Positions 35,486-53,987 of a stretch of DNA of 64,000 nt are shown here, piece by piece; positions within the stretch are counted from its first letter, which is position 1, and each line of letters starts with the position of its first letter. Location of the stretch: positions 62,001 to 126,000 of the forward strand of contig NZ_JAFKFW010000005.1 of the NCBI RefSeq assembly GCF_017308015.1. The letters run 5' to 3'. Below the pieces are notes generated by a model. It saw nothing but the letters and a program-made list of their open reading frames with translations. It searched no databases and had not been told where the DNA came from. The stretch is from Allobosea sp. (GTDB lineage Bacteria; Pseudomonadota; Alphaproteobacteria; Rhizobiales; Beijerinckiaceae). Made by a program: the position numbers and the translations under genes.

Positions 35486-35506
35486 CGCTGTCTCCGGTAA
35501 TGAGCG

Positions 35507-36961: not shown

Positions 36962-37011
36962 CTCTCCTCTGGCATCGCCGGAGCATCGCCCGGGCGCCGC
37001 GTGACCTCAAC

Positions 37012-37026
37012 ATACCAATGGTATAC
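37012..37026 (-). promoter_or_regulatory. Palindromic GntR-type operator in the divergent promoter
   Basis: ATACCA-A-TGGTAT, a perfect inverted repeat with one central base, in the 201 bp between the leftward amidohydrolase operon and the rightward gntR gene. Read on the minus strand with two flanking bases (GTATACCATTGGTAT), it matches the site at 24788-24802 at 13 of 15 positions. Confidence 0.6.
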
Positions 37027-37162
37027 ACATGGAATGGCAGACCGTGAACCCTCAGAATTCAACGTCCGACGCAGGTCTGCCGACGATGCGTTGGGCGGGC
37101 ACCGTTGCGTCCGGAAGGGAAATGCTGCAGCTCCAAGCCGCACGAATGAAGGGACCCCTGCG

Positions 37163-37810
37163 TTGACCGCCGACCAAGCCTCGACACTCGGCCACTCCAC
37201 TTACGAGCGGCTACGCGACATGATCCTCAATGGCGAACTCCCCGCGGGCACCTCGCTGCAGGAGAAGAAACTCGCCGAGCGCCTCGGCGTCTCGCGGACA
37301 CCCGTGCGCGAAGCGACGATGCGCCTGATGATGGAAGGGCTGGTGCTTCGCACGGCGGGGCTGACCCCGGTGGTGCGCCGTCTGTCCACCGACGATTTCA
37401 TCGAGATTCTGCATATCAGGCGACTGCTCGAGGTCGAGGCCGCGGGACGCGCCGCCGAAACCGGCGGGTCGGCAGAGCTCCAGGCGGTCGCGGCCCGCAT
37501 CGCCGCATTTCGCGACGGGGTGGAGCCGACCGCGGAGGAGCATGTGACGGTCGACGACCGGCTCCACCAGATTATCGCCGGTCTCGCCGGATCTCGCTTG
37601 CTGGCGGAAATGATCGCCGATCTCCGGAAAAAAACGAAGATCTTCGACATGGGACGGTTGCCTGAGCGCTTCGAGCCAGGAGTGCGCGAGCACCTCGAGA
37701 TCATCGAAGCAATCACCGCGCGGGACGTGACGCGCGCCCAGAATGCGATGCGCACCCATATCGACAATGTCCGATCCAGCGTCATGGATCACTTGCGACG
37801 ACTGTTCTGA
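37163..37810 (+). CDS. GntR-family regulator, FCD subfamily (hydantoinase cluster)
   Basis: A 215-residue regulator. The winged helix covers STYERLRDMILNGELPAGTSLQEKKLAERLGVSRTPVREA in outline, followed by an FCD ligand domain with the metal-type residues in HQIIAGLAG and EHLEIIEAITARD. I place the start at a TTG (37163), eight bases after AAGGGA at 37149-37154. An ATG at 37034 would add 43 residues without family likeness and lacks a clear ribosome-binding site. It diverges from the amidohydrolase operon and very likely binds the palindrome at 37012. Confidence 0.85.
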   Translation: MTADQASTLGHSTYERLRDMILNGELPAGTSLQEKKLAERLGVSRTPVREATMRLMMEGLVLRTAGLTPVVRRLSTDDFIEILHIRRLLEVEAAGRAAETGGSAELQAVAARIAAFRDGVEPTAEEHVTVDDRLHQIIAGLAGSRLLAEMIADLRKKTKIFDMGRLPERFEPGVREHLEIIEAITARDVTRAQNAMRTHIDNVRSSVMDHLRRLF

Positions 37811-38347: not shown

Positions 38348-39064
38348 ATGTCCCTCAACGACCTTGCCTTCCTCACGCCTGTCGCGCGGCGCAATCTCAA
38401 GGAGCTGGCCTATGAGCAGCTCCGTACGGGGCTCATCCGCGGCCGGTTTTCCCCGGGATACCCGCTGACGGTCCGCGGCGTCGCTGAGGCGCTCGGTATC
38501 AGCCCGATGCCGGTGCGCGCCGCGCTGGACAGGCTGGAGGCGGAGGGCGCTCTGGTCGCTCGCGACGGCAACCGCACACTGGCGGTGCCGGAACTGACGA
38601 TCGAGGCTTATCGCGAACTGCGCGAGATCCGCATCATGCTGGAAGGTCTAGCGGCCCAAAAGGCGGCCGAGGCCATCGTCCCTCATGAGCTCGAGGTGAT
38701 CGAGCAGGCGGTATCAGCCATGCAGGCCGCGGTGGATGCCGGCGATGTGGACGGCTATCTCAGCACGAACTGGCAGTTCCATTTCGGCGTTTACCGCTCC
38801 TCGCGCATGCCTGCGCTCGTCAGCATGATCGAAAGCCTGTGGCTGCGGGTCGGAGCCTATGTGCGCTGGATGATGCCTGATTCCGCAGCTCTTGAGCGCT
38901 CCATGCCCAATCACTGGCTCATCGCCGACGCACTGAAGCAGCGCGACGCCGTGGCGGCACGGCGCGCAATCGAGGCCGACATCCTGGAATCGTCCGATCA
39001 TCTGCTCAGCATGCTCGGTGCGAGTTCGACATCACGCGTGGCAGCGGAGGACATCCCGACATGA
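38348..39064 (+). CDS. GntR-family regulator, FCD subfamily (amino-alcohol operon)
   Basis: A 238-residue regulator. KELAYEQLRTGLIRGRFSPG and VAEALGISPMPVRAALDRLEAEG form the winged helix; YRELREIRIMLEGLAA begins the FCD domain, with NWQFHFGVYR and NHWLIADALKQRD carrying likely ligand or metal residues. It is first in the operon and overlaps the transporter ATPase gene (ATGA), so it is made together with the genes it presumably controls. Confidence 0.88.
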   Translation: MSLNDLAFLTPVARRNLKELAYEQLRTGLIRGRFSPGYPLTVRGVAEALGISPMPVRAALDRLEAEGALVARDGNRTLAVPELTIEAYRELREIRIMLEGLAAQKAAEAIVPHELEVIEQAVSAMQAAVDAGDVDGYLSTNWQFHFGVYRSSRMPALVSMIESLWLRVGAYVRWMMPDSAALERSMPNHWLIADALKQRDAVAARRAIEADILESSDHLLSMLGASSTSRVAAEDIPT

Positions 39065-40143
39065 GCGGCGCGGTTTCCTTTGTCGGCGTCCGGAAATTCT
39101 ACGGCACCGTGGAAGCGGTGAAAAACGTGGACTTGGCCATCAAGGCCGGAGAATTCGTTTCCCTGCTCGGCCCATCGGGTTCCGGAAAGTCCACGCTCCT
39201 GATGATGCTCGCGGGCCTGGAGCATCCCAGCGCCGGGGACCTGCTCGTCGATGGGCGCAGCATCGTCAAAGTGCCTGCCAACAAGCGCAATCTTGGCATG
39301 GTCTTCCAGAAATACACCTTGTTTCCGCATATGACGGTGGCGCAGAACATCGCCTTCCCGCTCACGGTCCGCGGGGTCAGTGTGCAGGAGCAGCGCCGCA
39401 AGATAGCCGATGCGCTGCGGGTGGTGCGCCTGCAGGATTTCGGGGATCGACTGCCTGGACAGCTATCCGGCGGCCAGCAGCAGCGCATCGCCCTTGCTCG
39501 CGCCCTCGTCTACGATCCGCCGGTCCTGCTCATGGACGAGCCCTTCGCCGCTCTGGATCGCAAGCTTCGTTTGGAGATGCAGGACGAAATCCGCCGCATC
39601 CAGCAAGAGCTGAATCTCACCATCGTCTTCGTCACCCACGACCAGGAAGAGGCGCTTCGCATTTCCCACCGCGTCGCGGTGCTGGCGGAAGGCAAGATGC
39701 AGCAGATCGGGACGCCGAAGGAAATCTACGAGGAGCCCGCCAACGGATTCGTCGCGCAGTTCATCGGCAACGTGAATTTCCTCTCAGCGCGTCTCGACGG
39801 ATGGGACGACAAGGTCCTCGTCGCCCTTTTGCCCGACGGGCGCCGCATCCGCGTCAACCCGCAGGCGCTCCGTCCTTCTGCCGCGCCGCCGGGTACGCCC
39901 CTGCGGATCGCGATACGGCCCGAGAACCTGGCCATCTGCGAAAACAGCGACAACGCCCTTGGCTCCGGCACCGTACTCGAATGCGTATACCTCGGTGAAA
40001 AGACGACCTGCGTCCTGCGCACTGCAACAGGCGCCGACGTGACGGTCGTTATCGGGGCCCATGACCCGAAACCCCAGCCGGGCAGCCATGTCGCCTTCGA
40101 TCTGAGGGTCGATACGGTCCCCGTTTTCGCCGAGGCGGCGTGA
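39061..40143 (+). CDS. Spermidine/putrescine-type ABC transporter ATPase (PotA-like)
   Basis: A 360-residue importer ATPase. Walker A LLGPSGSGKSTLL, signature LSGGQQQRIALARAL, Walker B LLMDEPFAALD and switch FVTHDQEEAL are intact, and a C-terminal TOBE-type domain (IAIRPENLAI) follows. The family imports polyamines, phosphonates, 2-aminoethylphosphonate, iron or other small cations and anions. The two permeases and binding protein follow in order. Confidence 0.92.
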   Translation: MSGAVSFVGVRKFYGTVEAVKNVDLAIKAGEFVSLLGPSGSGKSTLLMMLAGLEHPSAGDLLVDGRSIVKVPANKRNLGMVFQKYTLFPHMTVAQNIAFPLTVRGVSVQEQRRKIADALRVVRLQDFGDRLPGQLSGGQQQRIALARALVYDPPVLLMDEPFAALDRKLRLEMQDEIRRIQQELNLTIVFVTHDQEEALRISHRVAVLAEGKMQQIGTPKEIYEEPANGFVAQFIGNVNFLSARLDGWDDKVLVALLPDGRRIRVNPQALRPSAAPPGTPLRIAIRPENLAICENSDNALGSGTVLECVYLGEKTTCVLRTATGADVTVVIGAHDPKPQPGSHVAFDLRVDTVPVFAEAA

Positions 40144-41015
40144 TGGGCACGGTCCACCACCGGCCCGATATCGCGGCGGATTCCCCGCGTGATCTCAGCC
40201 GCCTGGTCGGGTTGCTGCTGATCCTGCCGGCGGTAGCGCTGATCGCGTCCCTATTCGTCGGGCCGGTGATCACCTTCCTCCTGCGCAGCTTCGAGGGCGA
40301 CGCATCGCCTTTCGAGCAATACACCCGGCTGTTCGGCAGCGATATCTATCTGCGGGTTCTGATCCGCACGCTCGTCATTTCGTTCCTGGTCACGCTGACC
40401 TGTCTGGTGCTGGGATACCCTGTCGCCTGGCTCCTGTCGCGCCTGCGCGGCTGGAAGCTCGCGCTCCTGGCCTTGTTCGTCCTGTTGCCGCTCTGGACCT
40501 CGGTACTCGTGCGCACCTATGCATGGACCGTGCTCCTGCAGCGCAACGGTATCGTCAATAGCGTGCTGACGGGCCTCGGTCTCACCGATGCGCCATTGCG
40601 GCTTCTCTACACCGACGGCGCTGTCGTCATCGCCATGGCGCATGTGCTCCTGCCGTTCCTCATCCTGCCGCTCTGGGGCAGCCTGCGGCAGATTCCGCCG
40701 GAGTTCCGCAGTGCCGCCCTCGTGCTCGGCGCGTCGGAATTCAGCATCTTCCGCCGCATCACCGCACCGCTGAGCGCAGCCGGAGTCGGCGCAGGCTGCC
40801 TCTTCGTCTTCCTGATCAGCCTCGGCTTTTTCGTGACGCCCGCTCTCGTCGGCGGCCCGCGCTCCATGATGATCGGCACACTGGTCTCGCAACAGGCGCT
40901 GGATGCGCTCAACTGGCCTTTCGCCGCGGCGCTCTCGGCCGTGATCACCGCCGTTGTCCTGATGGCAATGCCCTTTTGCCGGCGCCTCTTCCTCGTCACG
41001 CGAGCGGAGGGCTAG
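40143..41015 (+). CDS. Spermidine/putrescine-type ABC transporter permease (PotB-like)
   Basis: A 290-residue permease with about six helices. It starts in a TGATG overlap with the ATPase gene; a GTG one codon earlier is also possible. LPLWTSVLVRTYAWTVLLQ is the PotB hallmark, IPPEFRSAALVLGASEFSIFRRI the ATPase-docking loop. It ends two bases before the next start. Confidence 0.92.
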   Translation: MGTVHHRPDIAADSPRDLSRLVGLLLILPAVALIASLFVGPVITFLLRSFEGDASPFEQYTRLFGSDIYLRVLIRTLVISFLVTLTCLVLGYPVAWLLSRLRGWKLALLALFVLLPLWTSVLVRTYAWTVLLQRNGIVNSVLTGLGLTDAPLRLLYTDGAVVIAMAHVLLPFLILPLWGSLRQIPPEFRSAALVLGASEFSIFRRITAPLSAAGVGAGCLFVFLISLGFFVTPALVGGPRSMMIGTLVSQQALDALNWPFAAALSAVITAVVLMAMPFCRRLFLVTRAEG

Positions 41016-41017
41016 AG

Positions 41018-41818
41018 ATGGAGACGACCCCCGCTCGCATGCTGTCCGGCTTCGAATGGCTGATGCTGGCCCTTGCGATAGCCGTCGCAGCCTTCCTCAT
41101 CCTGCCCACGCTGATCATCGTGCCCATGTCCTTCGGCACAGACGGCTATCTCAACTTTCCGCCGCGCGGCTTCACCTTCCGCTGGTATGGCGAGTTCTTC
41201 AACGATGGCGACTGGCTGCGCGCCGCGTGGTTCAGCCTCAAGGTCGGCGTGCTGACCACGGTGGTCTCCGTCGTGCTGGGCACCGCGGCAGCCCTCGCTC
41301 TCACCCGTTCGCGGGTGCCCTTCGGGGGCCTGATGCAGCTCGTGATCATCATGCCGATGATCCTGCCGCAGATCGTCGTCGCCATCGCGCTGCTGCTCTT
41401 TTACCAGCAACTCGGCATGGTCGGCTCCATCGCCGCCTTCGTCGCGTCGCACGCCTGTCTCGCCATCCCCTTCGTTCTGTTCAGCGTCTCCGCCATCCTC
41501 AAGCGTTATGACGTCGATCTGGATGCCGCCGCCTATGTCTGCGGCGCGGACAGGTTCACGATCTTCCGCCGCATCACCCTGCCGATCATCTGGCCGGGCA
41601 TCGCGTCCGGAGCGCTGTTCTCCTTTCTGATTTCCTTCGACGAGGCCGTGATCTCGTTCTTCCTGTCGGGTGTCAGCGACAAGGCCATCGCCCGCAAGTT
41701 CTTCGAGGATGTCGAGCTCAATGTGACGCCGGTGCTCGCTGCCGTCGCCACCCTGCTGACCCTTGCGACCATCCTCGTGCTCGCCGCGACGGCGTTCCTC
41801 AAATCCGATCGCAAGTGA
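41018..41818 (+). CDS. Spermidine/putrescine-type ABC transporter permease (PotC-like)
   Basis: A 266-residue permease. LPTLIIVPMSFGTDGYLNFPP and RWYGEFFNDGDW are typical PotC features, DLDAAAYVCGADRFTIFRRITLP the docking loop, and ISFDEAVISFFLSG a conserved late segment. A 62-bp gap precedes the binding-protein gene. Confidence 0.92.
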   Translation: METTPARMLSGFEWLMLALAIAVAAFLILPTLIIVPMSFGTDGYLNFPPRGFTFRWYGEFFNDGDWLRAAWFSLKVGVLTTVVSVVLGTAAALALTRSRVPFGGLMQLVIIMPMILPQIVVAIALLLFYQQLGMVGSIAAFVASHACLAIPFVLFSVSAILKRYDVDLDAAAYVCGADRFTIFRRITLPIIWPGIASGALFSFLISFDEAVISFFLSGVSDKAIARKFFEDVELNVTPVLAAVATLLTLATILVLAATAFLKSDRK

Positions 41819-41880
41819 GCGCGAATTTTCACCGGCGAAGCCACGCCAACGTTCAACCAAGCAATAACAGAGGGAATGCC

Positions 41881-42936
41881 ATGAAATTTGCCACTGCCTC
41901 GTCTCTGATCTTCTCCTGCGCGCTTGCGCTGGCAGCCGGCTCCGCCGCCCGCGCTGCGGATCCGGAGGTCGTCATATCCTCGACCGGCGGTGCTTTCGCG
42001 AAGGCACTGCAGGAGAATTTCTACGAACCGTTCACTGCCGCGACGAAGATCAAGGTTGTACGGGTCGATACCGAGCTTCCGGCCCAGTTCGCCAGGCTGC
42101 AGGCGGAACTGAAGACCGGCTCCTCCGCATTCGACATCATCACCGCCGGCCCCGCCGATCTCATCGAGAAGCGCGATCTGCTTCAGCCGATCGATTGCGC
42201 CAAGCTGCCAAACCTCGCCAAGGAGGGGATCGAAGGCGCCTGCACCGGCTGGGGCATCATCCGCACGCTCGGCGGCATGGTCGTGACCTTCAACAAGGAA
42301 GCCTTCCCCAAGGAGAAACCCTCCAAATGGGCTGACTTCTGGGACGTGAAGACCTTCCCGGGCCCGCGCGGCCTGCCCGATACGGGCGACCGCGAATGGT
42401 GGGTGCCCACCATGGCGCTCCTTGCGGACGGCGTCCCCGCCGACAAGCTGTTCCCGCTCGATCTCGACCGCGCCTACAAGAAGCTCGATCAGCTCAAGCC
42501 GCATGTGGCGGTCTGGTACAAGAGCAACGATCAGGCCCAGCAGGCGCTGCGCAAGGGTGATGTCGTTCTCGCCATGGTCGTGTCCGGTCGCGCCGTCGGC
42601 GTGATGAAGGAAGGCCATCCCATCGATCTGAACTGGAACCAGTCGATCCGCGACGTCGGCCTGTGGGCGGTGGCGAAAGGCACCCGGCATCCTGAAGCCG
42701 CGATGAAGTTCCTCGACTTCTTCCTCGGCGGCGCCAAGGCTCACCTCGCCTTCGCGAATGTCGTCAACTACGACACCGGCAACCGGTCCTCGCTGGAACT
42801 CGTCCCCGAGGCCGAGCGCTCCCGCCGCATCGCCTATCCCGAAAACCTGAAGTCCCAGATCGTGCCGGACTACAAGTGGGTCGCCGAGAACCGCGACAAG
42901 CTGCGCGAGCGCTGGAACGAGTGGCTGTTGAAGTAA
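41881..42936 (+). CDS. Spermidine/putrescine-type ABC transporter substrate-binding protein (PotD-like)
   Basis: A 351-residue periplasmic protein with a Sec leader (SSLIFSCALALAAGSAARAAD). VVISSTGGAFAKALQENFYEPF and DIITAGPADLIEKRDLLQPID match the PotD/AfuA-like group. An AGAGGGA lies shortly before the ATG. The group binds small charged ligands; the downstream genes suggest an amide or amine bearing hydroxyl groups, which is inference. Confidence 0.9.
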   Translation: MKFATASSLIFSCALALAAGSAARAADPEVVISSTGGAFAKALQENFYEPFTAATKIKVVRVDTELPAQFARLQAELKTGSSAFDIITAGPADLIEKRDLLQPIDCAKLPNLAKEGIEGACTGWGIIRTLGGMVVTFNKEAFPKEKPSKWADFWDVKTFPGPRGLPDTGDREWWVPTMALLADGVPADKLFPLDLDRAYKKLDQLKPHVAVWYKSNDQAQQALRKGDVVLAMVVSGRAVGVMKEGHPIDLNWNQSIRDVGLWAVAKGTRHPEAAMKFLDFFLGGAKAHLAFANVVNYDTGNRSSLELVPEAERSRRIAYPENLKSQIVPDYKWVAENRDKLRERWNEWLLK

Positions 42937-42968
42937 GCCCTCACCATATCCGGCTAGGAGTTAAGACG

Positions 42969-44258
42969 ATGACCGATTGGGCGGGGCACCATCCCCTCGA
43001 CAATTCAAGGCGCCGGTTTCCGCCCGACGGGATCTCTCATCAAGAGATCATGGCAAAGCTCGACAAGGCCCAGGCTGCGGACGTGGATGTCCATGACCCC
43101 AGGAGCTTTCGCCCGAGCTATTTCGTCGGCCGCGAGGTGATCGATCTCATCTGCGAGGTGCAGACGCGGGTCGTGGAACAGAACGTGCTCTATGCCGGCT
43201 CCTCCTTTCCGAGTCTTCGAGAGATCGAGCGAGACGTCATCGACTTCTCCCTCGATCTGCTGAACGCCCCCTCCGGGGCCATCGGCACCGTCACGATCGG
43301 CGGGTCCGAAAGCAACTTCATGGCACTGAAGACGGCGCGGGATGCCGCGCGGGCGAAAGGCCGCGTCGCGGAGCCCTTCGATGTGGTGCTCGCACACACC
43401 GCCCATCCCTCGCTGGAAAAGGCGGCGCATATGCTCGGCATGCGCACCCGCCGTGCCACGAGCAGCATCGACTTCCAGGCGGACGTGTCCCAGATGGCCT
43501 CGCTCATCGGGCCGCAGACCATCATGATCGTCGGCTCCGCGCCGCCGGCCGCCTATGCCACCGTCGATCCCATTCCGGAGATCGGCGCGCTCGCCGAGAA
43601 GCATGATCTCTGGTTCCATGTGGACTGCTGCATGGGCGGCTTCTTCGTGCCTTTCGCGGAGGCGCTCGGCCAGGCCGTCCCCACCTTCGATTTCCGCGTG
43701 CCGAGCGTGCGCTCCATGTCCGCGGACCTGCACAAGTTCGGCTATGCGCCCAAGGGCGTCTCCGTCCTCCTGCTGCGCGAAGCCGCCCTGTTCGAGCATC
43801 AGGACTATCGCTTCGAGGATTGGCCGTTCGGGCACTATGCCACATCCGGGGTCGCCGGCTCGCGCCCGGCCGGTCCGCTGGTCGCTGCCTGGGCGGTGAT
43901 GCAGAAACTGGGCCGGCAAGGCTATCTCGATATCGCCCGCCGCGTCATCGCCCTGCGCCAGCGGCTGGAGCACGGCATCGCCGCGATCCCTGGCCTCAAG
44001 GTCATCGGCAGGCCGGCCGCCGCCCACCTCTTCCTTGCGTCCGACGAGATCGACGTCTTTGCCGTTGACGAGATGCTCGAAGCGAAGGGCTACAGCACCG
44101 CGCGGGCCTGGCATCCGGATTCGGTCCAGCTCTGGGTGAGCCTCAACCACGACGAGGCGGCTATCGACGCCCTTCTGACCGACCTGTCCCAGGCCGCCGA
44201 CGCGGCGCACCGGGACGCACTGCGCGCCCGGAACCGAGAGGCTGTGTATTCGCGATGA
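42969..44258 (+). CDS. Sphingosine-1-phosphate-lyase-like PLP enzyme
   Basis: A 429-residue group II fold-type I PLP enzyme. GSESNFMALKTARD, FHVDCCMGGFFVPFA (Asp219), SMSADLHKFGYAPKG (PLP Lys256) and ATSGVAGSRPAGPLVAAWAVM follow the sphingosine-1-phosphate lyase pattern, where ADTHKYGxAPKG and AGSRPG are diagnostic. That family cleaves the C2-C3 bond of a phosphorylated 2-amino-1,3-diol by retro-aldol reaction. The alternative is a decarboxylase of the glutamate or tyrosine type, which shares the fold. There is no membrane anchor, so it is soluble. It starts the catabolic part of the operon. Confidence 0.78.
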   Translation: MTDWAGHHPLDNSRRRFPPDGISHQEIMAKLDKAQAADVDVHDPRSFRPSYFVGREVIDLICEVQTRVVEQNVLYAGSSFPSLREIERDVIDFSLDLLNAPSGAIGTVTIGGSESNFMALKTARDAARAKGRVAEPFDVVLAHTAHPSLEKAAHMLGMRTRRATSSIDFQADVSQMASLIGPQTIMIVGSAPPAAYATVDPIPEIGALAEKHDLWFHVDCCMGGFFVPFAEALGQAVPTFDFRVPSVRSMSADLHKFGYAPKGVSVLLLREAALFEHQDYRFEDWPFGHYATSGVAGSRPAGPLVAAWAVMQKLGRQGYLDIARRVIALRQRLEHGIAAIPGLKVIGRPAAAHLFLASDEIDVFAVDEMLEAKGYSTARAWHPDSVQLWVSLNHDEAAIDALLTDLSQAADAAHRDALRARNREAVYSR

Positions 44259-44575
44259 CCATCAAATCCATCGATCCGGTCGCAGATCTTCCCTACGCCA
44301 AGGAATTCATGGAGATGCCGGTCGGCCGGCATAGCCCCAATCTGCAGCGCATCCTGCGTTTCATGCGGAGCGAGGCGGCCACGGAGAAGCCGTGCCTGCT
44401 CATCCTGGAGCCAGGCCGCAAATGGGCGCTGGTGCGCCTCGGCGGACCGGGCGAGGAGCACGTCGTCTCCATGAACAGGATCTATACCGACGAATTCGAG
44501 GCCGAGCGCGACGTCTTCGCACGCCGTTGGCTGAAGCTTACCGGCCAGGATCTGCACGAGGCGCTTTCCAAATGA
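44255..44575 (+). CDS. Dimethylformamidase-like small subunit
   Basis: A 106-residue protein overlapping its neighbours by four bases on both sides. The segment GRHSPNLQRILRFMR resembles the HPSPYLQR-type motif I recall from the small (alpha) subunit of N,N-dimethylformamidase, and the C-terminal EFEAERDVFARRWLKL matches the helical end of that subunit. Being directly before a large-subunit homologue supports the call. In known enzymes the small subunit packs against the large one without supplying the metal site. Confidence 0.65.
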   Translation: MTIKSIDPVADLPYAKEFMEMPVGRHSPNLQRILRFMRSEAATEKPCLLILEPGRKWALVRLGGPGEEHVVSMNRIYTDEFEAERDVFARRWLKLTGQDLHEALSK

Positions 44576-46836
44576 ACGAACTGCCCAAGCTCAACATCAT
44601 CGGATATGCCGACCATCAGTCGGTGGCCCCGGGCGATGTGGTGAAGTTCATGGTGAGCGAGGAGGGCAAGGCGCCCTCCTACCGTGCCCGCCTCTTGCGC
44701 ATGCACAGCATGGACAGCCATGCCGGCGGCTGCGGGCTCATCGAGGAAGCGGTGGCCGCAGATTTCGCAGGCGAATATCCCGCCCGTCACCAGAGCATCG
44801 TCACCGGCTCGTATATCCGCTTCCCTGCCGATCGGCAGCCGGAAGCGATCGGCAGCTTCACCGTACAGGCCTATATCTGGCCGACGCTTCCCGGCGAAGG
44901 CGGCCGCCAGACTCTGATGGCCTGCTGGAACGCGGCGGAGGATGCAGGCTTCCGCTTCGAGCTCGACGAGAAGGGCGCCCTTTCGCTGACCCTTGCGGGC
45001 GCGGGCGGCAAGCCCGTCACCGTTTCGACAGGCCGGCCGCTTCTGACGCGCGAATGGTACCTCGCTTCCGCAACCTTCGACCTTGAAACGGGGCAGGTGC
45101 GCGTGTCGCAGCAGCCCTTGCGGCCCTACCCCTTCATCAACGAGCCGGCGAGCGCGGACGGCTCGGTCTCCGTCCCGGGTCCCTGGACTGGCGGCACCCT
45201 GTCAATGGCCGCCCATGCGGCCGGCGGACCGGCCGAGCCCTATGCCGGCTTCTACAACGGGAAGATCGACCGGCCTCGTCTGGCGCGCCGCGCTCTCGAC
45301 GATGGCGAGATCGCGGTTCTCGCGGGTGATCGCCTGCCCGCGGAACTGTCCGCCGACGTGCTCGGCTGCTGGGACTTCTCGCTCGACCAGGGTACGACGA
45401 CGGTGCGCGACCTGTCCCTGTCGCTGCGCCACGGCGAGGCGGTAAACCTGCCCGCCCGCGCCATGACCGGCTTCAACTGGACGGGCGGCAACAACGACTT
45501 CAAGGTCGTGCCGCATGAATACGGCGCCATTCACTTCCATGACGACGATCTCTACGACGCCGAATGGGAAGCCGATTTCGAATGGACCGTGCCAGAGGAC
45601 ATGCCGAGCGGCTGCTATGCGGTGCAGCTCGATGACGGCGGCATGCCGGGCTACATCATGTTCTTCGTGCGCCCGCCCCGCCGCTTGCCGGGCCAGCCAG
45701 CTGGCAAGCGGCCGAAGATCGTGTTCATCGCGCCCACGGCCCACTATCTCGCCTATGCCAACTACCGGCTCACCGAGCGCGACCCCATGTCGGAAGCCTA
45801 TCGCGGCCGGCTGTGGCAGTTCGGTCCGGAAGACGTGCTGCTCGAGCAGCGCACCGATCTCGGCAACTCGCTCTACGAGCGCCACACGGACGGCAGCGGC
45901 GTCTGCTATTCGTCCTATCTGCGCCCTGTGCTCAACATGCGGCCCAATACGCGCCTGTCGAGCCTTGCCGGCGACGGCTATGTCCTCGCCTTCCTCCGCC
46001 ATCACGGCTTCGACTATGACGTGATCACCGACGAGGATCTCGATCGCGAGGGCCGCGATCTTCTCGATCCCTACAACGTCATCCTAACCGGCGGGCACCC
46101 GGAATATACCTCCGCCCGGATGTGGGACGGGCTCGTCGGCTTCCTGCAGCGTGGCGGACGGCTCATGTATCTCGGCGGCAACGGCTTCTATTGGCGCGTC
46201 GCCTTCCACGATACGCTCCCCGGCGTGCTCGAGGTGAGGCGCGGCGAAGACGGCACCCGCCCATGGGTCGCCGAGCCCGGCGAATACTACATGAGCTTCA
46301 CCGGCGAATATGGCGGCCTCTGGCGTCGCAACGGCCGCGCTCCGAACACGCTCGTCGGCGTCGGCTTCACGGCACAGGGCTTCGACATAGCAACCCACTA
46401 TCGCCGCAATGCCGATGCGAATGATCCACGGGCGAAGTTCATCTTCGACGGCGTCGACGACGAGATCATCGGTGATTTCGGTGTCGGCTTCGGCGGCGCC
46501 GCGGGGCAGGAGATCGACCGCTACGACCGCAATCTGGGCTCCCCGCCTCACGCGCTCGTGCTCGCCACCTCCGAGGGTCATACCGACAACATGCTTCTCG
46601 CCAACGAGGATCTCGATGCCACGCATCTGCGGGTCGGCGGCGTCGAGAACGAATTGGTTCGCGCCGACATGGTGTTCTTCGAGACGGGCCATGGCGGAGC
46701 AGTGTTCTCCTCCGGCTCCATCTCCTGGGTCGCGGCAATGCCCTGGCAGAACTTCGACAACAACGTCGCGCAGATCACGCTCAACGTCCTGAAGCGGTTC
46801 GTCGACGACGCGCCGTTCCCGAAGATCGGCGGCTAA
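44572..46836 (+). CDS. Dimethylformamidase-like large subunit (iron amidohydrolase)
   Basis: A 754-residue protein close to the 760-residue large (beta) subunit of N,N-dimethylformamidase. A LamG/concanavalin-like domain covers about residues 75-255 (SFTVQAYIWPT, YAGFYNGKIDRPRLARRAL), and a Rossmann-like catalytic domain follows from about 380. The Paracoccus enzyme is known to hold one iron with two tyrosines and one glutamate; candidates here are Tyr392 or Tyr395 (APTAHYLAYANY), Tyr446 (GSGVCYSSYLRP) and Glu511 (TGGHPEYTS). It probably hydrolyses an N-formyl, N-acyl or substituted amide; dimethylformamide itself is unlikely in this context. Confidence 0.8.
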   Translation: MNELPKLNIIGYADHQSVAPGDVVKFMVSEEGKAPSYRARLLRMHSMDSHAGGCGLIEEAVAADFAGEYPARHQSIVTGSYIRFPADRQPEAIGSFTVQAYIWPTLPGEGGRQTLMACWNAAEDAGFRFELDEKGALSLTLAGAGGKPVTVSTGRPLLTREWYLASATFDLETGQVRVSQQPLRPYPFINEPASADGSVSVPGPWTGGTLSMAAHAAGGPAEPYAGFYNGKIDRPRLARRALDDGEIAVLAGDRLPAELSADVLGCWDFSLDQGTTTVRDLSLSLRHGEAVNLPARAMTGFNWTGGNNDFKVVPHEYGAIHFHDDDLYDAEWEADFEWTVPEDMPSGCYAVQLDDGGMPGYIMFFVRPPRRLPGQPAGKRPKIVFIAPTAHYLAYANYRLTERDPMSEAYRGRLWQFGPEDVLLEQRTDLGNSLYERHTDGSGVCYSSYLRPVLNMRPNTRLSSLAGDGYVLAFLRHHGFDYDVITDEDLDREGRDLLDPYNVILTGGHPEYTSARMWDGLVGFLQRGGRLMYLGGNGFYWRVAFHDTLPGVLEVRRGEDGTRPWVAEPGEYYMSFTGEYGGLWRRNGRAPNTLVGVGFTAQGFDIATHYRRNADANDPRAKFIFDGVDDEIIGDFGVGFGGAAGQEIDRYDRNLGSPPHALVLATSEGHTDNMLLANEDLDATHLRVGGVENELVRADMVFFETGHGGAVFSSGSISWVAAMPWQNFDNNVAQITLNVLKRFVDDAPFPKIGG

Positions 46837-46860
46837 GCCGCCAACCTTGAGACGGGTATC

Positions 46861-47868
46861 ATGAAGAAGATCATCAATTCCTCCGTCGACTTCGTCGACG
46901 AGATGCTGGACGGTCTGTGCTCCGCCCATCCCGAATACTATGCCCAGCCGGAGCGTCGCGTGCTGGTGCGCTCGGTTCCGGCCCGGGATGGCAAGGTGGG
47001 CATCGTTACAGGCGGCGGCTCCGGCCATTTGCCGATTTTCGCCGGCTATGTCGGTCCCGGCCTGCTCGACGGCGCCGCCATCGGCGATGTCTTCGCCTCG
47101 CCCTCCTCGGACCAGATCCGCAAGGCGATCAAGCATGCGGAACGCGGCGCCGGTGTATTGTGCCTCTACGGCAATTATGGCGGCGACGTCATGAACTTCG
47201 ACATGGCCTGCGAGATGCTGGAGCTCGAAGGCCTGCGCACCGAAACGGTGCTCGTCGCGGACGACGTGGCATCCGCGCCGCTGGCCGAAGCCGCCAAACG
47301 CCGCGGCGTCGCCGGCATGGTCTATGCCTTCAAGATCGCAGGAGCCGCGGCCGACGCCGGCGGCGACCTCACTGCCGTCACCGCTGCCGCCCGCAAGGCG
47401 GCAGAGTCCTGCCGCTCCATCGGCGTCGCCCTCTCGCCCTGCATCGTACCGCAGGCGGGCAAGCCGAGTTTCACCCTCGGCGAGGACGAGATCGAGATGG
47501 GCATGGGTATCCACGGCGAACGCGGCATCTGGCGCAACCGCCTGCGTTCCGCCGACGAGATCGTCGACGAAATGGTAGCGCGCCTGCGCGAGGACATGCC
47601 TCTCGCTTCCGGTCAGCGCGTGTCGGTTCTCGTCAATTCCCTTGGCGCGACTCCGCCGGAAGAGCTCTACGTGGCCTTCCGCCGCGTGCGGCAGATCCTG
47701 GAAGCCGACGGCATCAGGATCGTGATGCCCCTCGTCGGACGCTACGCCACGTCCATGGAGATGGCGGGCATGTCGCTCACCGTCATGGCCCTCGACGACG
47801 AGCTGGAAACCTGGCTGAAGGCCCCCGCAGCCTGCGCCTTCTGGCAGGTAGCAGGGGATAGGGCATGA
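46861..47868 (+). CDS. dhaK: Dihydroxyacetone-kinase substrate-binding subunit (DhaK-like)
   Basis: A 335-residue DhaK. GIVTGGGSGHLPIFAGYVGPGLLDGAAIGDVFASPS is present in outline, and EIEMGMGIHGERG holds the histidine that binds the keto substrate covalently as a hemiaminal. The gene is coupled to dhaL by overlap. Known substrates of the family include dihydroxyacetone, erythrulose and other short ketoses, so it may phosphorylate a carbonyl product of the pathway. Confidence 0.9.
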   Translation: MKKIINSSVDFVDEMLDGLCSAHPEYYAQPERRVLVRSVPARDGKVGIVTGGGSGHLPIFAGYVGPGLLDGAAIGDVFASPSSDQIRKAIKHAERGAGVLCLYGNYGGDVMNFDMACEMLELEGLRTETVLVADDVASAPLAEAAKRRGVAGMVYAFKIAGAAADAGGDLTAVTAAARKAAESCRSIGVALSPCIVPQAGKPSFTLGEDEIEMGMGIHGERGIWRNRLRSADEIVDEMVARLREDMPLASGQRVSVLVNSLGATPPEELYVAFRRVRQILEADGIRIVMPLVGRYATSMEMAGMSLTVMALDDELETWLKAPAACAFWQVAGDRA

Positions 47869-48476
47869 TTGCCTCGTCCTTCACGGTCGACGAACTGATC
47901 CGCGCAGTCGACCGGCTCGCCGCCGCGGCACAGACTTTCGCAGCGGAGCTCAACGAGGCCGACGGTAGGCTCGGCGACGGCGACCTCGGCATCACCCTGT
48001 CCAACGGCTGGCGCACAGCGACCCAGAAGCTCGCCGGGGCGAGGCCCGCCGACATCGCCGGCGTCTTCCTCACCTGCGCCGTGGCGTTCCAGGAAAGCTC
48101 CGCCTCCTCCTTCGGCACGCTCACCGCGACGGGCCTCATGGCTGCGGCCAAGGCGTCCTCCGGCCGGACCGAGATGAAGCCTGCGGAGATTTCGGGCCTC
48201 CTGCGCGCCGCGATGGACGCCATGGCGCGGCGCGGCAAGGCCGAGCCCGGCGACAAGACGGTGCTCGATTCGCTCGCTGCCATGGCCGCTGCCACGGCGT
48301 CTGACGGCACTGCGGACGACCTGCGCAAGGTCTGTGTCCGCGCGGCTTCCGAAGCAGCCGAGCTGTTCCGCAGCAAGGCGAACCGCATCGGCCGGGCGCG
48401 CATGTTCGGTGAGGATTCCATCGGCATCGTCGATCCCGGTATGCTCGCCGCACTGCGCATGGCTGAGAGCGTCTGA
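47865..48476 (+). CDS. dhaL: Dihydroxyacetone-kinase nucleotide-binding subunit (DhaL-like)
   Basis: A 203-residue helical barrel. NEADGRLGDGDLGITLSNG carries the three aspartates that hold Mg-nucleotide (the usual GDGDHG has Leu for His), followed by SSFGTLTATGL, PGDKTVLDSLAAM and GEDSIGIVDPG. No DhaM or phosphotransferase gene is near, so ATP or unlinked phosphotransferase proteins must supply phosphate. It lies between dhaK and the hydroxylysine-kinase-like gene. Confidence 0.88.
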   Translation: MIASSFTVDELIRAVDRLAAAAQTFAAELNEADGRLGDGDLGITLSNGWRTATQKLAGARPADIAGVFLTCAVAFQESSASSFGTLTATGLMAAAKASSGRTEMKPAEISGLLRAAMDAMARRGKAEPGDKTVLDSLAAMAAATASDGTADDLRKVCVRAASEAAELFRSKANRIGRARMFGEDSIGIVDPGMLAALRMAESV

Positions 48477-48480
48477 CGAC

Positions 48481-49524
48481 ATGCAAGGGTCGACGCTGGC
48501 CATGATCTCGACGCTGGAATCGGCGCCCCCGCATCTGTCGGAAGCCGAGGCGCGGGATATCGCAGCCGCATATTTCGGGCTCGACGGCCAGGCCAGGCGG
48601 CTGGTGAGCGAGCGGGATGCCAATTTCCGCATCGAGCAGGCGGACGGGCAATGCTTCGTCCTCAAGGTGACCAACCCGGCCGAGCCGAGCAGCCTCACCG
48701 ATCTGCAGACCAAGGCCCTGCTGCATATCGAGGCGGCCGATCCCGGCCTTCCGGTACCGCGCCTCGTGCCGACGAGGGATGGCGACCACGAACTTGCTCT
48801 CGCCCTGGATGGGGCGACCTGCATCGCGCGCGTCCTCACCTATCTGCCAGGGCAACCGCTGCACCTTCTGGACGGCACGTCGCGCCAGCGCCGCAACATC
48901 GGCGCGTGCCTTGCCCGGCTCGGCCTGGCGTTGAAGGATTTTTCGCATCCGGAAGGGGACCACGATCTTCTCTGGGATATCAGGCACGCCTCGCGCCTGC
49001 GCCAGTTCACCACCTACATCGACGACACCTGCCGCCGAGCGCTGGTGGAGAGCTTCCTTGAGCGCTTCGCCACCGAAGTCGAGCCCCATTTTCCCGCGCT
49101 GCGTGCGCAGCTTGTGCACAACGACTTCAATCCGCACAATATTCTGATCGGGCACGATGAGGCTGTATCGGGCATCATAGACTTCGGCGACATGGTCCTG
49201 ACGCCCCTCGTCAACGACCTCGCCATCGCGACCGCCTATCACGTGTGCGCCGAGGGCCACCCGCTGGACGGCATCGCCGAAATGGTCGGCGCCTATAACG
49301 ATGTCACGCCGCTCCTTCCGCTGGAAATCGACCTGCTGTTCGACCTCATCGCCGCGCGCTTCGCGACCACGGTGGTCATCACCCATTGGCGTGCACAGTG
49401 CCACCCGGCGAACAGCGCCTACATCCTTCGCAACAATCCGCGCGCCTGGCTGGGCCTGGAGCGCTTTGCCAGGCTGTCCCGCGGCGAAGCCCGCGCGGTC
49501 TTCGCAGCCGCCTGCGCACTCTAG
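48481..49524 (+). CDS. Hydroxylysine-kinase-like APH/choline-kinase-fold enzyme
   Basis: A 347-residue kinase of the aminoglycoside phosphotransferase fold. SERDANFRIEQADGQCFVLKVTN is the nucleotide loop and is nearly diagnostic for the hydroxylysine kinase (HYKK/AGPHD1) group; LLWDIRHA, LVHNDFNPHNILIG (catalytic Asp) and GIIDFGDMVLTPLVNDLAIA follow. HYKK phosphorylates the hydroxyl of 5-hydroxylysine for a PLP phospholyase, which is exactly the gene that follows here. It most likely phosphorylates a hydroxylated amine. Confidence 0.85.
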   Translation: MQGSTLAMISTLESAPPHLSEAEARDIAAAYFGLDGQARRLVSERDANFRIEQADGQCFVLKVTNPAEPSSLTDLQTKALLHIEAADPGLPVPRLVPTRDGDHELALALDGATCIARVLTYLPGQPLHLLDGTSRQRRNIGACLARLGLALKDFSHPEGDHDLLWDIRHASRLRQFTTYIDDTCRRALVESFLERFATEVEPHFPALRAQLVHNDFNPHNILIGHDEAVSGIIDFGDMVLTPLVNDLAIATAYHVCAEGHPLDGIAEMVGAYNDVTPLLPLEIDLLFDLIAARFATTVVITHWRAQCHPANSAYILRNNPRAWLGLERFARLSRGEARAVFAAACAL

Positions 49525-49533
49525 GAGACGACG

Positions 49534-50865
49534 ATGATCGTGGACCGCTCCATGGTAAACGCCTTCGTTCCCGGCGCCGCCGTCCTTAGCGAGCATGAGA
49601 ACGCTCTCGTGTCGAGGCGCCAGCGTGTGCTGGGGCCCGCCTATCGCCTGTTCTACGAGCGGCCGGTGCATCTGGTGCGCGGGCAAGGCGTCTGGCTCTA
49701 CGACGAAGCGGGGCAGGCCTATCTCGACGTCTACAACAACGTCGCCTCGCTCGGCCACTGCCATCCGAAGGTGGTCGAGGCGATTTCGCGCCAGGCGGGC
49801 CTCCTCGCCACCCACACCCGCTACCTGCACGAAGACATTCTCGCCTACGCGGAACGTCTCCTCGCGACCCTGCCCGACAGCATCGGGCAGATGATGTTCA
49901 CCTGCACCGGCAGTGAAGCGAACGATCTCGCCCTTCGCATCGCGCGCGGCGTCACAGGCGGAGAGGGCGTCATCGTGACGGCCTGCGCCTACCACGGAGT
50001 GACGGGTACGGTAGCCGCGATCTCGCCCTCCCTGGGTGAGCATGTACCGCTCGCGCGCACGACCCGCACCGTGGCGGCGCCGGACGCCTACCGGACCGGC
50101 GAAGCGGATGTCGGCGCCGCCTTCGAGGCAGACGTGCGCCGTGCCATCGCGGACATGCGCCGGCACGGCATCCGTCCGGCCGCGCTCATTGCGGATTCCG
50201 TTTTCTCGAGCGACGGCATCTACCCCCATCCGGCTGGCGTCTTGCAGGGCGCAGCGGCCGCGATCCGCGAGGCTGGCGGCCTCTTCATCGCCGACGAGGT
50301 TCAGTCCGGCTTCGGGCGCACCGGTGAGAACATGTGGGGCTTTGCGCGCCACGGCGTGCTGCCGGATCTCGTCACTTTCGGCAAACCCATGGGCAACGGC
50401 TACCCCGTAGCAGGCCTCGCCGCAAATCCGCAGACGCTTCGGGAATTCGGCGAGCGGTCACGCTATTTCAACACCTTCGGCGGCAACGCCGTCGGCATCG
50501 CTGCGGCAACCGCAGTCCTCGACGTCATCGAGGAGGAGGGTCTCCTCGAAAACGCACACAAAACCGGAGCTTACTTCCGGGAGAGGCTGGAAGCGCTCGC
50601 CGCATCCTGCGAAGCCATCGGCGATGTGCGTCAGGTCGGGCTTTTTATCGGTGTCGAGATCGTCAAGGACCGAACCGGCAGGGAGCCGGACGCCGCTCTT
50701 ACCACCACCATCGTCAATGGCCTGCGCGAGCGTGGCGTGCTCATCAGCGCGACCGGACCGCGGGCCAATGTCCTGAAAATCCGCCCACCGCTGAATTTCG
50801 AAACATCCCACGTCGACTTTTTCATGGAGCGCATGAGCGAAGTACTATCGCTCCAAAAAACTTGA
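49534..50865 (+). CDS. Class III aminotransferase-family phospholyase (ethanolamine-phosphate / phosphohydroxylysine phospholyase-like)
   Basis: A 443-residue fold-type I PLP enzyme. YLDVYNNVASLGHCHPKVVEAI, TRYLHEDILAYAERLLATLP and FTCTGSEANDLALRIAR match the AGXT2L group, whose members eliminate phosphate and ammonia from phosphoethanolamine or phosphohydroxylysine to leave an aldehyde. IADEVQSGFGRTG and TFGKPMGNGYP (PLP Lys) are intact. Lying 9 bp after the HYKK-like kinase, it should act on the phosphorylated amine. An ordinary omega-aminotransferase is the main alternative. Confidence 0.83.
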   Translation: MIVDRSMVNAFVPGAAVLSEHENALVSRRQRVLGPAYRLFYERPVHLVRGQGVWLYDEAGQAYLDVYNNVASLGHCHPKVVEAISRQAGLLATHTRYLHEDILAYAERLLATLPDSIGQMMFTCTGSEANDLALRIARGVTGGEGVIVTACAYHGVTGTVAAISPSLGEHVPLARTTRTVAAPDAYRTGEADVGAAFEADVRRAIADMRRHGIRPAALIADSVFSSDGIYPHPAGVLQGAAAAIREAGGLFIADEVQSGFGRTGENMWGFARHGVLPDLVTFGKPMGNGYPVAGLAANPQTLREFGERSRYFNTFGGNAVGIAAATAVLDVIEEEGLLENAHKTGAYFRERLEALAASCEAIGDVRQVGLFIGVEIVKDRTGREPDAALTTTIVNGLRERGVLISATGPRANVLKIRPPLNFETSHVDFFMERMSEVLSLQKT

Positions 50866-52642: not shown

Positions 52643-53941
52643 TCAGGCGGCCGGCGCCGGAACCGGCGCCTCGGAGCGCCTCGGAGCGCGGACGGGCTCC
52701 GCGCCGAAGCTCAAGGGCCGATCACCATCGGCGTCCCTGATGCGGGCGGGCAGGCCCATGCGGTCGAGCAGCGCGAGGAAAGGCCTCGGCGCCAGCTCCT
52801 CGACATTGACCATCTTCCGCACGTCCCAATCACCCTTGGCGATGAGCAGCGCCGCCGCAGCAGCCGGAACGCCCGCCGTATAGGAGATCGCCTGGCTGCC
52901 GACTTCCGCAAAGGCTTCGGCATGGTCGGCGACGTTGTAGATGAACACCTCCCGCGGCTTGCCGTCTTTCATGCCCTTCACCACGTCGCCGATGCAGGTC
53001 TTGCCCGCATAGTCCGGTGCGAGCGAGGACGGGTCCGGCAGAACGGCCTTGACCACCTTGAGCGGAATCACCTCCTGGCCCTCCGCGGTCCTGACCGGCT
53101 GTTCGGAGAGCAGACCGAGATTCTTCAGGACGTTGAACACCGTGATGTAGCGCTCGCCGAAACCCATCCAGAACCGGACATTGGGCACGCCGAGATGCTT
53201 CGACAGCGAGTGGATCTCGTCATGTCCGGTCAGATAGGCGGTGCGCCTGCCGACGACCGGCAGATCCCATTCCTTGCTGACCTCGAACATCCTGTTCGAT
53301 GTCCACCGGCCTTGCTGCCAGGACCAGACCTGCCCGGTGAATTCGCGGAAATTGATCTCGGGATCGAAATTGGTCGCGAAATAGCGCCCGTGGTCGCCGG
53401 CATTGATGTCGACGATGTCGATCGAGTCGATCCTGTCGAAATACTCGTCCTGCGCCAGCCGGGCATAGGCGTTAACGACGCCCGGGTCGAAACCGGCGCC
53501 GAGGATGGCGGTGACGCCGGCACCTGCGCATTCGGCCAGCCGCTTCCATTCATAGTTGCCGTACCACGGCGGCGTCTCGCAGACCTTGCGGGGGTCCTCG
53601 TGGATCGCCGTGTCGATATAGGCGGCGCCGGTCGCGAGGCAGGCCGAGAGCACCGCCATGTTGAGGAAGGCCGAGCCGACATTGATGACGATCGCGCTGT
53701 TGGTCTGCCTGATGAGGTTGGCCGTCTGCTCGATGTCGAGGGCGTCGAGCTCATGCGCAAGTAGCCTCCCGCCCGTCTTCAGACTGCCCTTCGCGTGAAC
53801 CGACGCGATGATGGCCTCGCCTTTGGCCTTCGTCCGCGACGCGATGTGAATATCGCCCAGGACATCGTTGTTCTGAGCGCATTTGTGGGCAACGACGTGG
53901 CCTACGCCGCCGGCACCGATGATCAGGATGTTTCTCTTCAT
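52643..53941 (-). CDS. Carboxynorspermidine/carboxyspermidine dehydrogenase (saccharopine dehydrogenase family)
   Basis: A 432-residue NADPH enzyme that condenses putrescine or diaminopropane with aspartate semialdehyde to form carboxy(nor)spermidine. ILIIGAGGVGHVVAHKCAQN is the NADP loop; IASRTKAKGEAI, HELDALD and VINVGSAFLNMAVLSACLATGAAYIDTA follow, then ILGAGFDPGVVNAYAR. The partner decarboxylase gene lies 46 bp upstream on the same strand, which fixes the assignment and points to the aspartate-semialdehyde route to spermidine. Confidence 0.92.
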   Translation of the reverse strand: MKRNILIIGAGGVGHVVAHKCAQNNDVLGDIHIASRTKAKGEAIIASVHAKGSLKTGGRLLAHELDALDIEQTANLIRQTNSAIVINVGSAFLNMAVLSACLATGAAYIDTAIHEDPRKVCETPPWYGNYEWKRLAECAGAGVTAILGAGFDPGVVNAYARLAQDEYFDRIDSIDIVDINAGDHGRYFATNFDPEINFREFTGQVWSWQQGRWTSNRMFEVSKEWDLPVVGRRTAYLTGHDEIHSLSKHLGVPNVRFWMGFGERYITVFNVLKNLGLLSEQPVRTAEGQEVIPLKVVKAVLPDPSSLAPDYAGKTCIGDVVKGMKDGKPREVFIYNVADHAEAFAEVGSQAISYTAGVPAAAAALLIAKGDWDVRKMVNVEELAPRPFLALLDRMGLPARIRDADGDRPLSFGAEPVRAPRRSEAPVPAPAA

Positions 53942-53987
53942 TTTGGCTGGGGCCTCCTTTCAGTTTTCGGATGCTTCGGGGAAAGTC

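What the first reader, a model, noticed from the sequence alone, without database searches (positions are those of the whole stretch)
38348..50865. Twelve-gene operon that reads as a complete route for an N-acylated amino alcohol
Seen: a GntR gene, a PotABCD importer, a sphingosine-1-phosphate-lyase-like PLP enzyme, both dimethylformamidase-like subunits, DhaK, DhaL, a hydroxylysine-kinase-like enzyme and an AGXT2L-like phospholyase, all on one strand with gaps of 62 bp or less. Known: S1P lyase splits a phosphorylated 2-amino-1,3-diol into phosphoethanolamine plus aldehyde; AGXT2L1 turns phosphoethanolamine into acetaldehyde, ammonia and phosphate; HYKK feeds such phospholyases. Inferred: import of a polar amide, amide hydrolysis by the iron enzyme, phosphorylation, retro-aldol cleavage, then phospholyase; DhaKL would phosphorylate a keto or polyol fragment. 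A small, soluble parallel to sphingolipid breakdown has not, to my knowledge, been described.
Basis: partly seen in the sequence, partly recalled or inferred. Interest (0 to 1): 0.87.

Follow-up and report, generated by a model that had tools for sequence, protein, structure and literature searches.

The report
Bacterial operon degrading an amino-alcohol amide
A twelve-gene bacterial operon looks able to import a small amide, split it, and break its amino-alcohol part down in steps that resemble the last stages of sphingolipid breakdown, but the whole set was seen in only one genome and its real substrate is unknown.

Summary
The PLP enzyme falls with sphingosine-1-phosphate (S1P) lyases, not decarboxylases; the class III enzyme falls with phosphoethanolamine phospholyases. 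Both dimethylformamidase (DMFase)-type subunits are present with all iron-site residues. DhaKL is probably ATP-driven (no DhaM found). Modules recur instead: kinase + phospholyase; GntR-PotABCD + DMFase (with a tetronate-type downstream in six same-genus genomes); S1P-lyase-like gene + amide hydrolase; DhaKL + C-C lyase. The closest S1P-lyase-like relative (59%) also sits beside a DMFase-like gene, but its genome shows no phospholyase at the cut-off used and the two DMFase-like proteins are not close kin. Most likely chain: import, amide hydrolysis, phosphorylation, retro-aldol cleavage to phosphoethanolamine plus a triose-like aldehyde, phospholyase, triose kinase. Order and substrate are inferred. 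Known enzyme kinds, in a combination my paper searches did not find.

The parts
38348..39064 (+). GntR/FCD-family regulator
   Evidence: Pfam GntR and FCD above cut-off
39061..40143 (+). ABC importer ATPase, PotA type
   Evidence: Pfam ABC_tran, TOBE_2; PotA models 351-354 bits, below their cut-offs of 356 and 482
40143..41015 (+). ABC importer permease, PotB type
   Evidence: ORF; tblastn to PotABCD clusters, 34-59%; not scanned with Pfam itself
41018..41818 (+). ABC importer permease, PotC type
   Evidence: ORF; tblastn to PotABCD clusters, 31-52%; not scanned with Pfam itself
41881..42936 (+). Solute-binding protein, PotD/mannopine/GABA-binding group
   Evidence: Pfam SBP_bac_8; best PDB match is a mannopine-binding protein, 5l9s, 164 bits
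42969..44258 (+). PLP enzyme, S1P-lyase-like
   Evidence: PDB: S1P lyases 271-138 bits, decarboxylases 77 bits or less; tree
44255..44575 (+). DMFase-type small subunit
   Evidence: Homologue upstream of the large subunit (within 258 bp) in 17 of 22 loci; profile match to Paracoccus dmfA1
44572..46836 (+). DMFase-type large subunit (Fe amidohydrolase family)
   Evidence: Pfam DMFA2_C 320 bits; PDB DMFase 484 bits, N-acetyl-(R)-beta-Phe acylase 447 bits; Fe-site residues in 25 of 25 rows
46861..47868 (+). DhaK, dihydroxyacetone-kinase substrate subunit
   Evidence: Pfam Dak1 405 bits; PDB 3ct4 277 bits
47865..48476 (+). DhaL, dihydroxyacetone-kinase ATP subunit
   Evidence: Pfam Dak2 113 bits
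48481..49524 (+). APH-fold kinase, HYKK-like
   Evidence: Pfam APH; kinase part of PRK06148; partner of the phospholyase in 20 of 20 regions and in L287, L288
49534..50865 (+). Class III PLP phospholyase, AGXT2L/ETNPPL-like
   Evidence: PDB: phospholyases 379 and 348 bits, next best 177; tree

Best explanation
A catabolic operon for a small hydrophilic amide of an amino polyol or amino diol. (1) PotABCD imports it. (2) The two-subunit DMFase-type iron amidohydrolase cuts the amide and frees the amine. (3) The HYKK-like kinase phosphorylates its primary hydroxyl. (4) The S1P-lyase-like PLP enzyme splits the C2-C3 bond by retro-aldol, giving O-phosphoethanolamine and a short hydroxy-aldehyde. 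(5) The phospholyase turns phosphoethanolamine into acetaldehyde, ammonia and phosphate. (6) ATP-type DhaKL phosphorylates the hydroxy-aldehyde (triose). Shown: the families, the conserved catalytic residues checked and the operon layout. Inferred: the substrate, the order of steps, and that one molecule passes through all of them.
For: PLP enzyme in the S1P-lyase clade with StSPL (SH-aLRT 98), decarboxylase-type rows outside; Lys/Arg six residues after the PLP lysine in 28 of 28 clade rows and 0 of 6 outside rows. Phospholyase clade support 100, with Arthrobacter 5g4i and human ETNPPL. Kinase beside phospholyase in 20 of 20 regions and in L287, L288, which were picked by a DNA match spanning both. 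DMFase Fe ligands and two other residues conserved in 25 of 25 rows (residues from passages of PMC7686228); small subunit homologous to dmfA1. DhaKL kin near a C-C lyase gene in 7 of 7 annotated regions read; no DhaM in the genome. Window and L011 pair the closest PLP genes (59%) with DMFase-like genes. Six of 66 same-genus genomes pair a similar importer and DMFase with a 3-oxo-tetronate-kinase-type gene and class II aldolase, which fits a polyhydroxylated substrate. The PLP gene is the only PF00282 match in this genome. Five of seven genomes with PLP relatives hold a phospholyase elsewhere.
Against: The full gene set was seen only here. Two of those seven genomes, L011's (7.2 Mb MAG) and L022's (6.0 Mb MAG), have no phospholyase at E<=1e-90, and in the other five it is 43-52% identical and was not seen beside the PLP gene, so this PLP family need not make phosphoethanolamine. 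StSPL His129 (role recalled) is Tyr in the window and is His in only 3 of 96 rows. No PLP-relative locus read has an HYKK or DhaKL match; class III matches there are 34% or less, and those put in a tree (from 8 loci) fell outside the phospholyase clade. The DMFase-like proteins of the window and L011 are not close kin (38%, apart in the tree). The genome holds two further kinase-phospholyase pairs with no PLP neighbour. No substrate has been tested.
Confidence: 0.42

Rival explanations
1. Lyase before kinase. The PLP enzyme cleaves the unphosphorylated amino diol freed by the amidase and gives ethanolamine (or another simple amino alcohol). The kinase then phosphorylates that, and the phospholyase finishes. 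Each module keeps the job it has when it stands alone.
For: PLP relatives occur with amide hydrolases, some also with importers, but without kinase or phospholyase neighbours (L011, L013, L022, L045). Kinase-phospholyase pairs stand alone, 8 of 20 with PotABCD in the stretch read. A Burkholderia S1P lyase cleaves non-phosphorylated sphingosine at about 8% of its S1P rate (passage of PMC5234717). The His recalled as phosphate-binding is lost.
Against: The Lys/Arg recalled as phosphate-binding (StSPL K317) is kept in 95 of 96 rows. No ethanolamine ammonia-lyase (EutB) was found in any of 7 genomes searched, so kinase-less genomes have no obvious use for ethanolamine by that route.
Confidence: 0.28
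2. Parallel use of two halves. The amidase splits an amide into a hydroxy-acid/polyol half, which feeds DhaKL, and an amino-alcohol half, which goes to kinase and phospholyase; the PLP enzyme acts on something else in the same nutrient. There is no single linear chain.
For: Six same-genus genomes have a similar importer-amidase block with a wholly different set of flanking genes: aminotransferase, AroE-like, split transketolase, 3-oxo-tetronate kinase, class II aldolase, SDR. The modules recur separately.
Against: S1P lyase's known product is the phospholyase's known substrate, and the PLP gene is the genome's only PF00282 match; chance placement in one operon is unlikely but not excluded.
Confidence: 0.18
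3. The PLP enzyme decarboxylates, or aldol-cleaves, a beta-hydroxy amino acid freed by the amidase (for example an N-acyl serine-like compound), giving an amino alcohol or glycine; kinase and phospholyase use the amino alcohol.
For: Amino-acid importers, M20 hydrolases or racemases near several PLP relatives on plasmids; a threonine-aldolase-type (PF01212) gene near L011's copy; NCBIfam's best model is MfnA tyrosine decarboxylase (198 bits, below its cut-off of 299).
Against: Tree and the +6 Lys/Arg place it outside the decarboxylase-type rows; PDB bit scores 271 vs 77. DhaKL unexplained.
Confidence: 0.1

Closest known systems
Eukaryotic sphingolipid end-stage catabolism (sphingosine kinase, S1P lyase SGPL1, ETNPPL) - recalled
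   Same: Same order of enzyme kinds is possible: kinase, S1P-lyase-type cleavage, phosphoethanolamine phospholyase.
   Different: Different kinase family (APH), ABC importer for a soluble compound instead of lipids, DMFase-type amidase instead of ceramidase, added triose kinase; substrate unknown.
Bacterial kinase + class III phospholyase pairs and PRK06148-type fusions
   Same: HYKK-like kinase beside an AGXT2L-like enzyme of 56-67% identity, 8 of 20 with PotABCD in the stretch read.
   Different: None of the 22 regions read has an S1P-lyase-like, DMFase or DhaKL match in its stretch of 15-25 kb.
Paracoccus N,N-dimethylformamidase and Burkholderia N-acetyl-(R)-beta-phenylalanine acylase
   Same: Large subunit 484 and 447 bits; Fe ligands conserved against the Paracoccus enzyme; small subunit homologous to dmfA1.
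   Different: 38% identical to the Paracoccus aminophilus DMFase; the residue at Ser395 is His here; substrate unknown.
Symbiobacterium S1P lyase (StSPL)
   Same: 271 bits over 402 residues, PLP lysine and +6 Lys kept.
   Different: In a separate clade; His129 is Tyr; no sphingolipid gene recognised in the operon.
Same-genus sister clusters L280-L284, L300
   Same: GntR, PotABCD, both DMFase subunits (PotD 50-54%, large subunit 40-41%).
   Different: Neighbouring genes are tetronate-type, not S1P-lyase/phospholyase.

Membership tests
S1P lyase family (PLP, group II) | Groups with a proven S1P lyase, apart from decarboxylases | tested here: met
   Tree, SH-aLRT 98 (quick method; long outgroup branches warned of); PDB ranks
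S1P lyase family (PLP, group II) | PLP-binding Lys (StSPL K311) | tested here: met
   96 of 96 rows; role from passages of PMC3148216. The printed chain numbers one higher; I assumed that offset
S1P lyase family (PLP, group II) | Substrate-phosphate residues Tyr105, His129, Lys317 (roles recalled) | tested here: inconclusive
   Tyr and Lys kept, His replaced by Tyr; therefore called S1P-lyase-like only
S1P lyase family (PLP, group II) | Cleaves a phosphorylated 2-amino-1,3-diol to phosphoethanolamine | not testable with these tools
   Needs enzyme assay
AGXT2L/ETNPPL phospholyases | Groups with proven phospholyases, apart from transaminases | tested here: met
   29-row clade, support 100, with 5g4i and 6tor pieces; matches under 300 residues were left out
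AGXT2L/ETNPPL phospholyases | Ammonia and phosphate release from phosphoethanolamine or 5-phosphohydroxylysine | not testable with these tools
   Needs enzyme assay
DMFase-type amidohydrolase | Fe ligands Tyr399, Tyr440, Glu521 with His519 and Asn547 | tested here: met
   Window Tyr395, Tyr435, Glu511, His509, Asn537; 25 of 25 rows; Paracoccus residues from PMC7686228 passages
DMFase-type amidohydrolase | Small subunit encoded next to the large one | tested here: met
   Profile match to dmfA1
ATP-type dihydroxyacetone kinase DhaKL | DhaK and DhaL domains, no PTS subunit DhaM | tested here: met
   Pfam Dak1, Dak2; TIGR02364 0 of 1 in own genome, rings in 3 of 14 controls
Hydroxylysine kinase | Match to a proven HYKK or activity on 5-hydroxylysine | tested here: inconclusive
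   Only APH fold and PRK06148 kinase part
Complete conserved pathway cluster | Same enzyme set in other genomes | tested here: not met

The most novel reading that the evidence does not exclude
A bacterial, water-soluble counterpart of sphingolipid end-catabolism: an imported N-acyl amino polyol is deacylated by an iron amidase, phosphorylated, cleaved by an S1P-lyase relative into phosphoethanolamine and a triose, and both halves are drained by a phospholyase and a triose kinase. It would put an S1P-lyase relative outside lipid metabolism and point to an unrecognised class of amino-polyol amide nutrients.
Probability: 0.33. Interest if true: 0.75.

Novelty: new variant of a known kind. Interest (0 to 1): 0.5.

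Why it matters
This operon places one beside enzymes with sharply limited chemistry, so a small set of possible substrates can be tested. It would also give DMFase-type iron amidases, a large family with two named activities among solved structures, a physiological role.

Tried and rejected
Rejected: PLP enzyme as an ordinary decarboxylase; class III enzyme as an ordinary omega-aminotransferase; PTS-type DhaKLM; a conserved twelve-gene cluster; ethanolamine ammonia-lyase as an alternative sink.

Led nowhere: PDB search with the small subunit (best E 1.2); direct BLASTP of the small subunit to dmfA1 (E 0.002 over 37 residues), replaced by a profile; promoter and terminator scan, near chance; paper searches for the combination; DNA search to name the organism, which gave only short or distant plasmid matches, so the genus is not named.

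Not read: 2 of the 17 phospholyase places and most of the 385 plasmid records; most DMFase places (20 read); 8 of the 15 DhaK plasmid records of 60-80% identity; the neighbours of five further DhaK regions fetched (L285, L286, L289-L291) were not annotated. Rows dropped: PLP pieces under 330 residues (L105 is absent), class III matches under 300 residues.

Considered, not tested: ligand of the binding protein; substrate pocket of the PLP enzyme (no structure prediction was obtained).
Full report
What is there. Twelve + strand genes run from 38348 to 50865 with gaps of 62 bp or less. The order is GntR/FCD regulator, PotA, PotB, PotC, PotD, PLP enzyme, DMFase small subunit, DMFase large subunit, DhaK, DhaL, APH-fold kinase, class III PLP enzyme (PotB and PotC by similarity to importer clusters; small subunit). 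GC content is within the range of the window and no tRNA was found. Terminator-like sites are not above chance. A single transcript is plausible but not shown.

PLP enzyme. Among solved structures the S1P lyases lead with 271 to 138 bits; decarboxylases score 77 or less. In a 34-row tree the window protein falls in a 28-row S1P-lyase clade with StSPL (SH-aLRT 98). E. coli GadB, a Lokiarchaeal group II protein (which I labelled MfnA-like by eye) and four Archangium group II proteins fall outside; the tree was a quick one and warned of long branches among these. All 28 clade rows (two are the same gene) have Lys or Arg six residues after the PLP lysine; none of the six outside rows has it. I recall this residue as StSPL Lys317, a substrate-phosphate contact; no call shows its role. 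His129 of StSPL, recalled as another contact, is Tyr in the window. In a set of 96 rows, picked for likeness to the window and including it, that position is His in 3 and Tyr in 12, and the +6 residue is Lys/Arg in 95. I therefore call the enzyme S1P-lyase-like and do not file it as an S1P lyase.

Phospholyase and kinase. The class III enzyme matches the Arthrobacter phospholyase 5g4i (379 bits) and human ETNPPL (348 bits) far above the next class III enzyme (177 bits), and its clade with them has support 100. In one search I read 20 regions: 14 of the 17 phospholyase places (the window is one of the three left out) and six plasmid regions, three picked by phospholyase and three by kinase. All 20 have both genes side by side (divergent in L098). 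Two more same-genus regions, L287 and L288, also do, but were picked by a DNA match spanning both. PotABCD lies in the stretch read in 8 of the 20: all six plasmid regions (about 10 kb away in L094) and L160 and L165. None of the 22 stretches has a PLP, DMFase or DhaKL match. The window's own genome has two more such pairs. NCBIfam's PRK06148 model joins both enzymes in one chain. The pair is thus a recurring module.

Amidase. The large subunit matches Paracoccus DMFase (484 bits) and N-acetyl-(R)-beta-phenylalanine acylase (447 bits). The Fe ligands and two further residues named in passages of PMC7686228 are conserved in 25 of 25 rows. The small subunit, without a significant match in Pfam, NCBIfam or the PDB, has a homologue just upstream of the large one in 17 of 22 loci and matches Paracoccus dmfA1 by profile.

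DhaKL. No DhaM was found in the genome, so an ATP-type kinase is likely. Seven annotated regions with 61-66% identical DhaK were read: five have a DapA- or citrate-lyase-type aldolase within two genes and two have an acetolactate-synthase-type ThDP enzyme next door. No background rate was taken. The operon itself has no such gene except the PLP enzyme, which fits a role in making the DhaKL substrate.

Conservation. Not counting the window's genome, the PLP enzyme has relatives at E 1e-60 in 2 of 149 nearest genomes and 6 of 396 genomes of the order (41% or less), and at E 1e-80 in 40 of 384 of the class (44% or less but for one partial 48% match). L011 has a DMFase-like gene beside the PLP gene, with an ABC importer, a Gfo/Idh/MocA oxidoreductase and a threonine-aldolase-type enzyme. 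Of the 90 loci then held only L011 and the window's own L001 had a DMFase match near the PLP gene, and none had a kinase or DhaKL match (L001 is cut short of them). A further 20 PLP regions gave one with a lone small-subunit homologue (L236) and none with kinase or DhaKL.

Neighbours of PLP relatives. L022 and L045 pair PLP genes of 40-41% with GntR and PotABCD and with an amidase plus hydantoinase or an M20 hydrolase; L013 has a hydantoinase B and an isochorismatase-family gene within 10 kb. L004, L005, L006 and L009 have an M20 hydrolase nearby; L007 and L008 show no amide hydrolase next to the gene. Other loci were not annotated, so this is a tendency, not a rate. Seven genomes with PLP relatives were searched for the phospholyase at E 1e-90: five have one (43-52%, in the phospholyase clade), while those of L011 and L022 have none; their completeness is not given. 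EutB was not found in six of these genomes or in the window's own.

A sister cluster. Six of 66 same-genus genomes (G001, G008, G012, G019, G032, G041) carry a divergent GntR gene, PotABCD and both DMFase subunits (PotD 50-54% to the window, large subunit 40-41%). Flanking them in all six are a glutamate-semialdehyde-aminomutase-like enzyme, an AroE-like enzyme, a split transketolase, a 3-oxo-tetronate kinase, a class II aldolase and an SDR. The family names were checked on L281 alone, where the kinase passes its NCBIfam cut-off (369 vs 350 bits) and the other NCBIfam matches shown do not. The window's large subunit is closest not to theirs but to those of G640 and G591, which suggests that modules have been exchanged. 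The sister cluster hints that this importer-amidase block serves polyhydroxylated amides.

Mechanism. The best single account is import, amide hydrolysis, phosphorylation, retro-aldol cleavage to phosphoethanolamine and a hydroxy-aldehyde, phospholyase, triose kinase. It explains why S1P-lyase-like, phospholyase and triose-kinase genes share one operon. The main alternative puts the cleavage before the kinase. It explains better why the PLP group and the kinase pair live apart elsewhere, and a Burkholderia S1P lyase does cleave non-phosphorylated sphingosine at about 8% of its S1P rate (passage of PMC5234717). Sequence alone cannot decide.

Known or new. Papers: passages only of PMC7686228, PMC5234717, PMC3148216, PMC8154272 and PMC12138971; the rest were search listings. 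Searches for the combination or its parts found no paper describing it in the open-licence library held; subscription journals are mostly missing from it. Kinase-phospholyase degradation of simple amino alcohols is, from memory, older knowledge. Each enzyme kind is known; the combination appears undescribed and was found complete in one genome only.

Noticed in passing
L280-L284, L300 (G041, G012, G008, G019, G001, G032): Same-genus cluster: PotABCD and DMFase with aminotransferase, AroE-like, split transketolase, 3-oxo-tetronate kinase, class II aldolase and SDR; looks like its own route for a sugar-acid-like amide.
   Followed up: partly
L236: 8508-10778: Lone DMFase small-subunit homologue, then an ABC ATPase that reads as LivF type, then an S1P-lyase-like gene, with no large-subunit match in the 17 kb read.
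   Followed up: partly
G000:C5:143457-144764 and G000:C54:146026-147288: Two further phospholyase genes with kinase neighbours in the window's own genome.
   Followed up: partly
L188 and L216: DhaKL next to three CoA-transferase genes and an acetolactate-synthase-type enzyme in Azospirillum and Shinella; looks like a separate pathway.
   Followed up: no
window 34022-37810: Hydantoinase-like and amidohydrolase genes on the - strand with a second GntR gene just upstream of the operon (recognised by eye only).
   Followed up: no
window 6033-18070: Region that reads by eye as amino-sugar / cell-wall recycling (deacetylase, SIS isomerase, AnmK-like, MurA, BadF-type kinase).
   Followed up: no
window 52643-55085: Saccharopine-dehydrogenase-like and decarboxylase-like genes, by eye a carboxynorspermidine pair.
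   Followed up: no
L088, L201, L203 (genome G859): A Lokiarchaeota MAG holds two S1P-lyase-like genes (L088 and L203 are one of them) and a further group II gene, L197.
   Followed up: no
class-wide search: DMFase-like large subunits reach E 1e-150 in 47 of 384 genomes of the class besides the window's own; 22 of these show two places, the most that were scored per genome.
   Followed up: no
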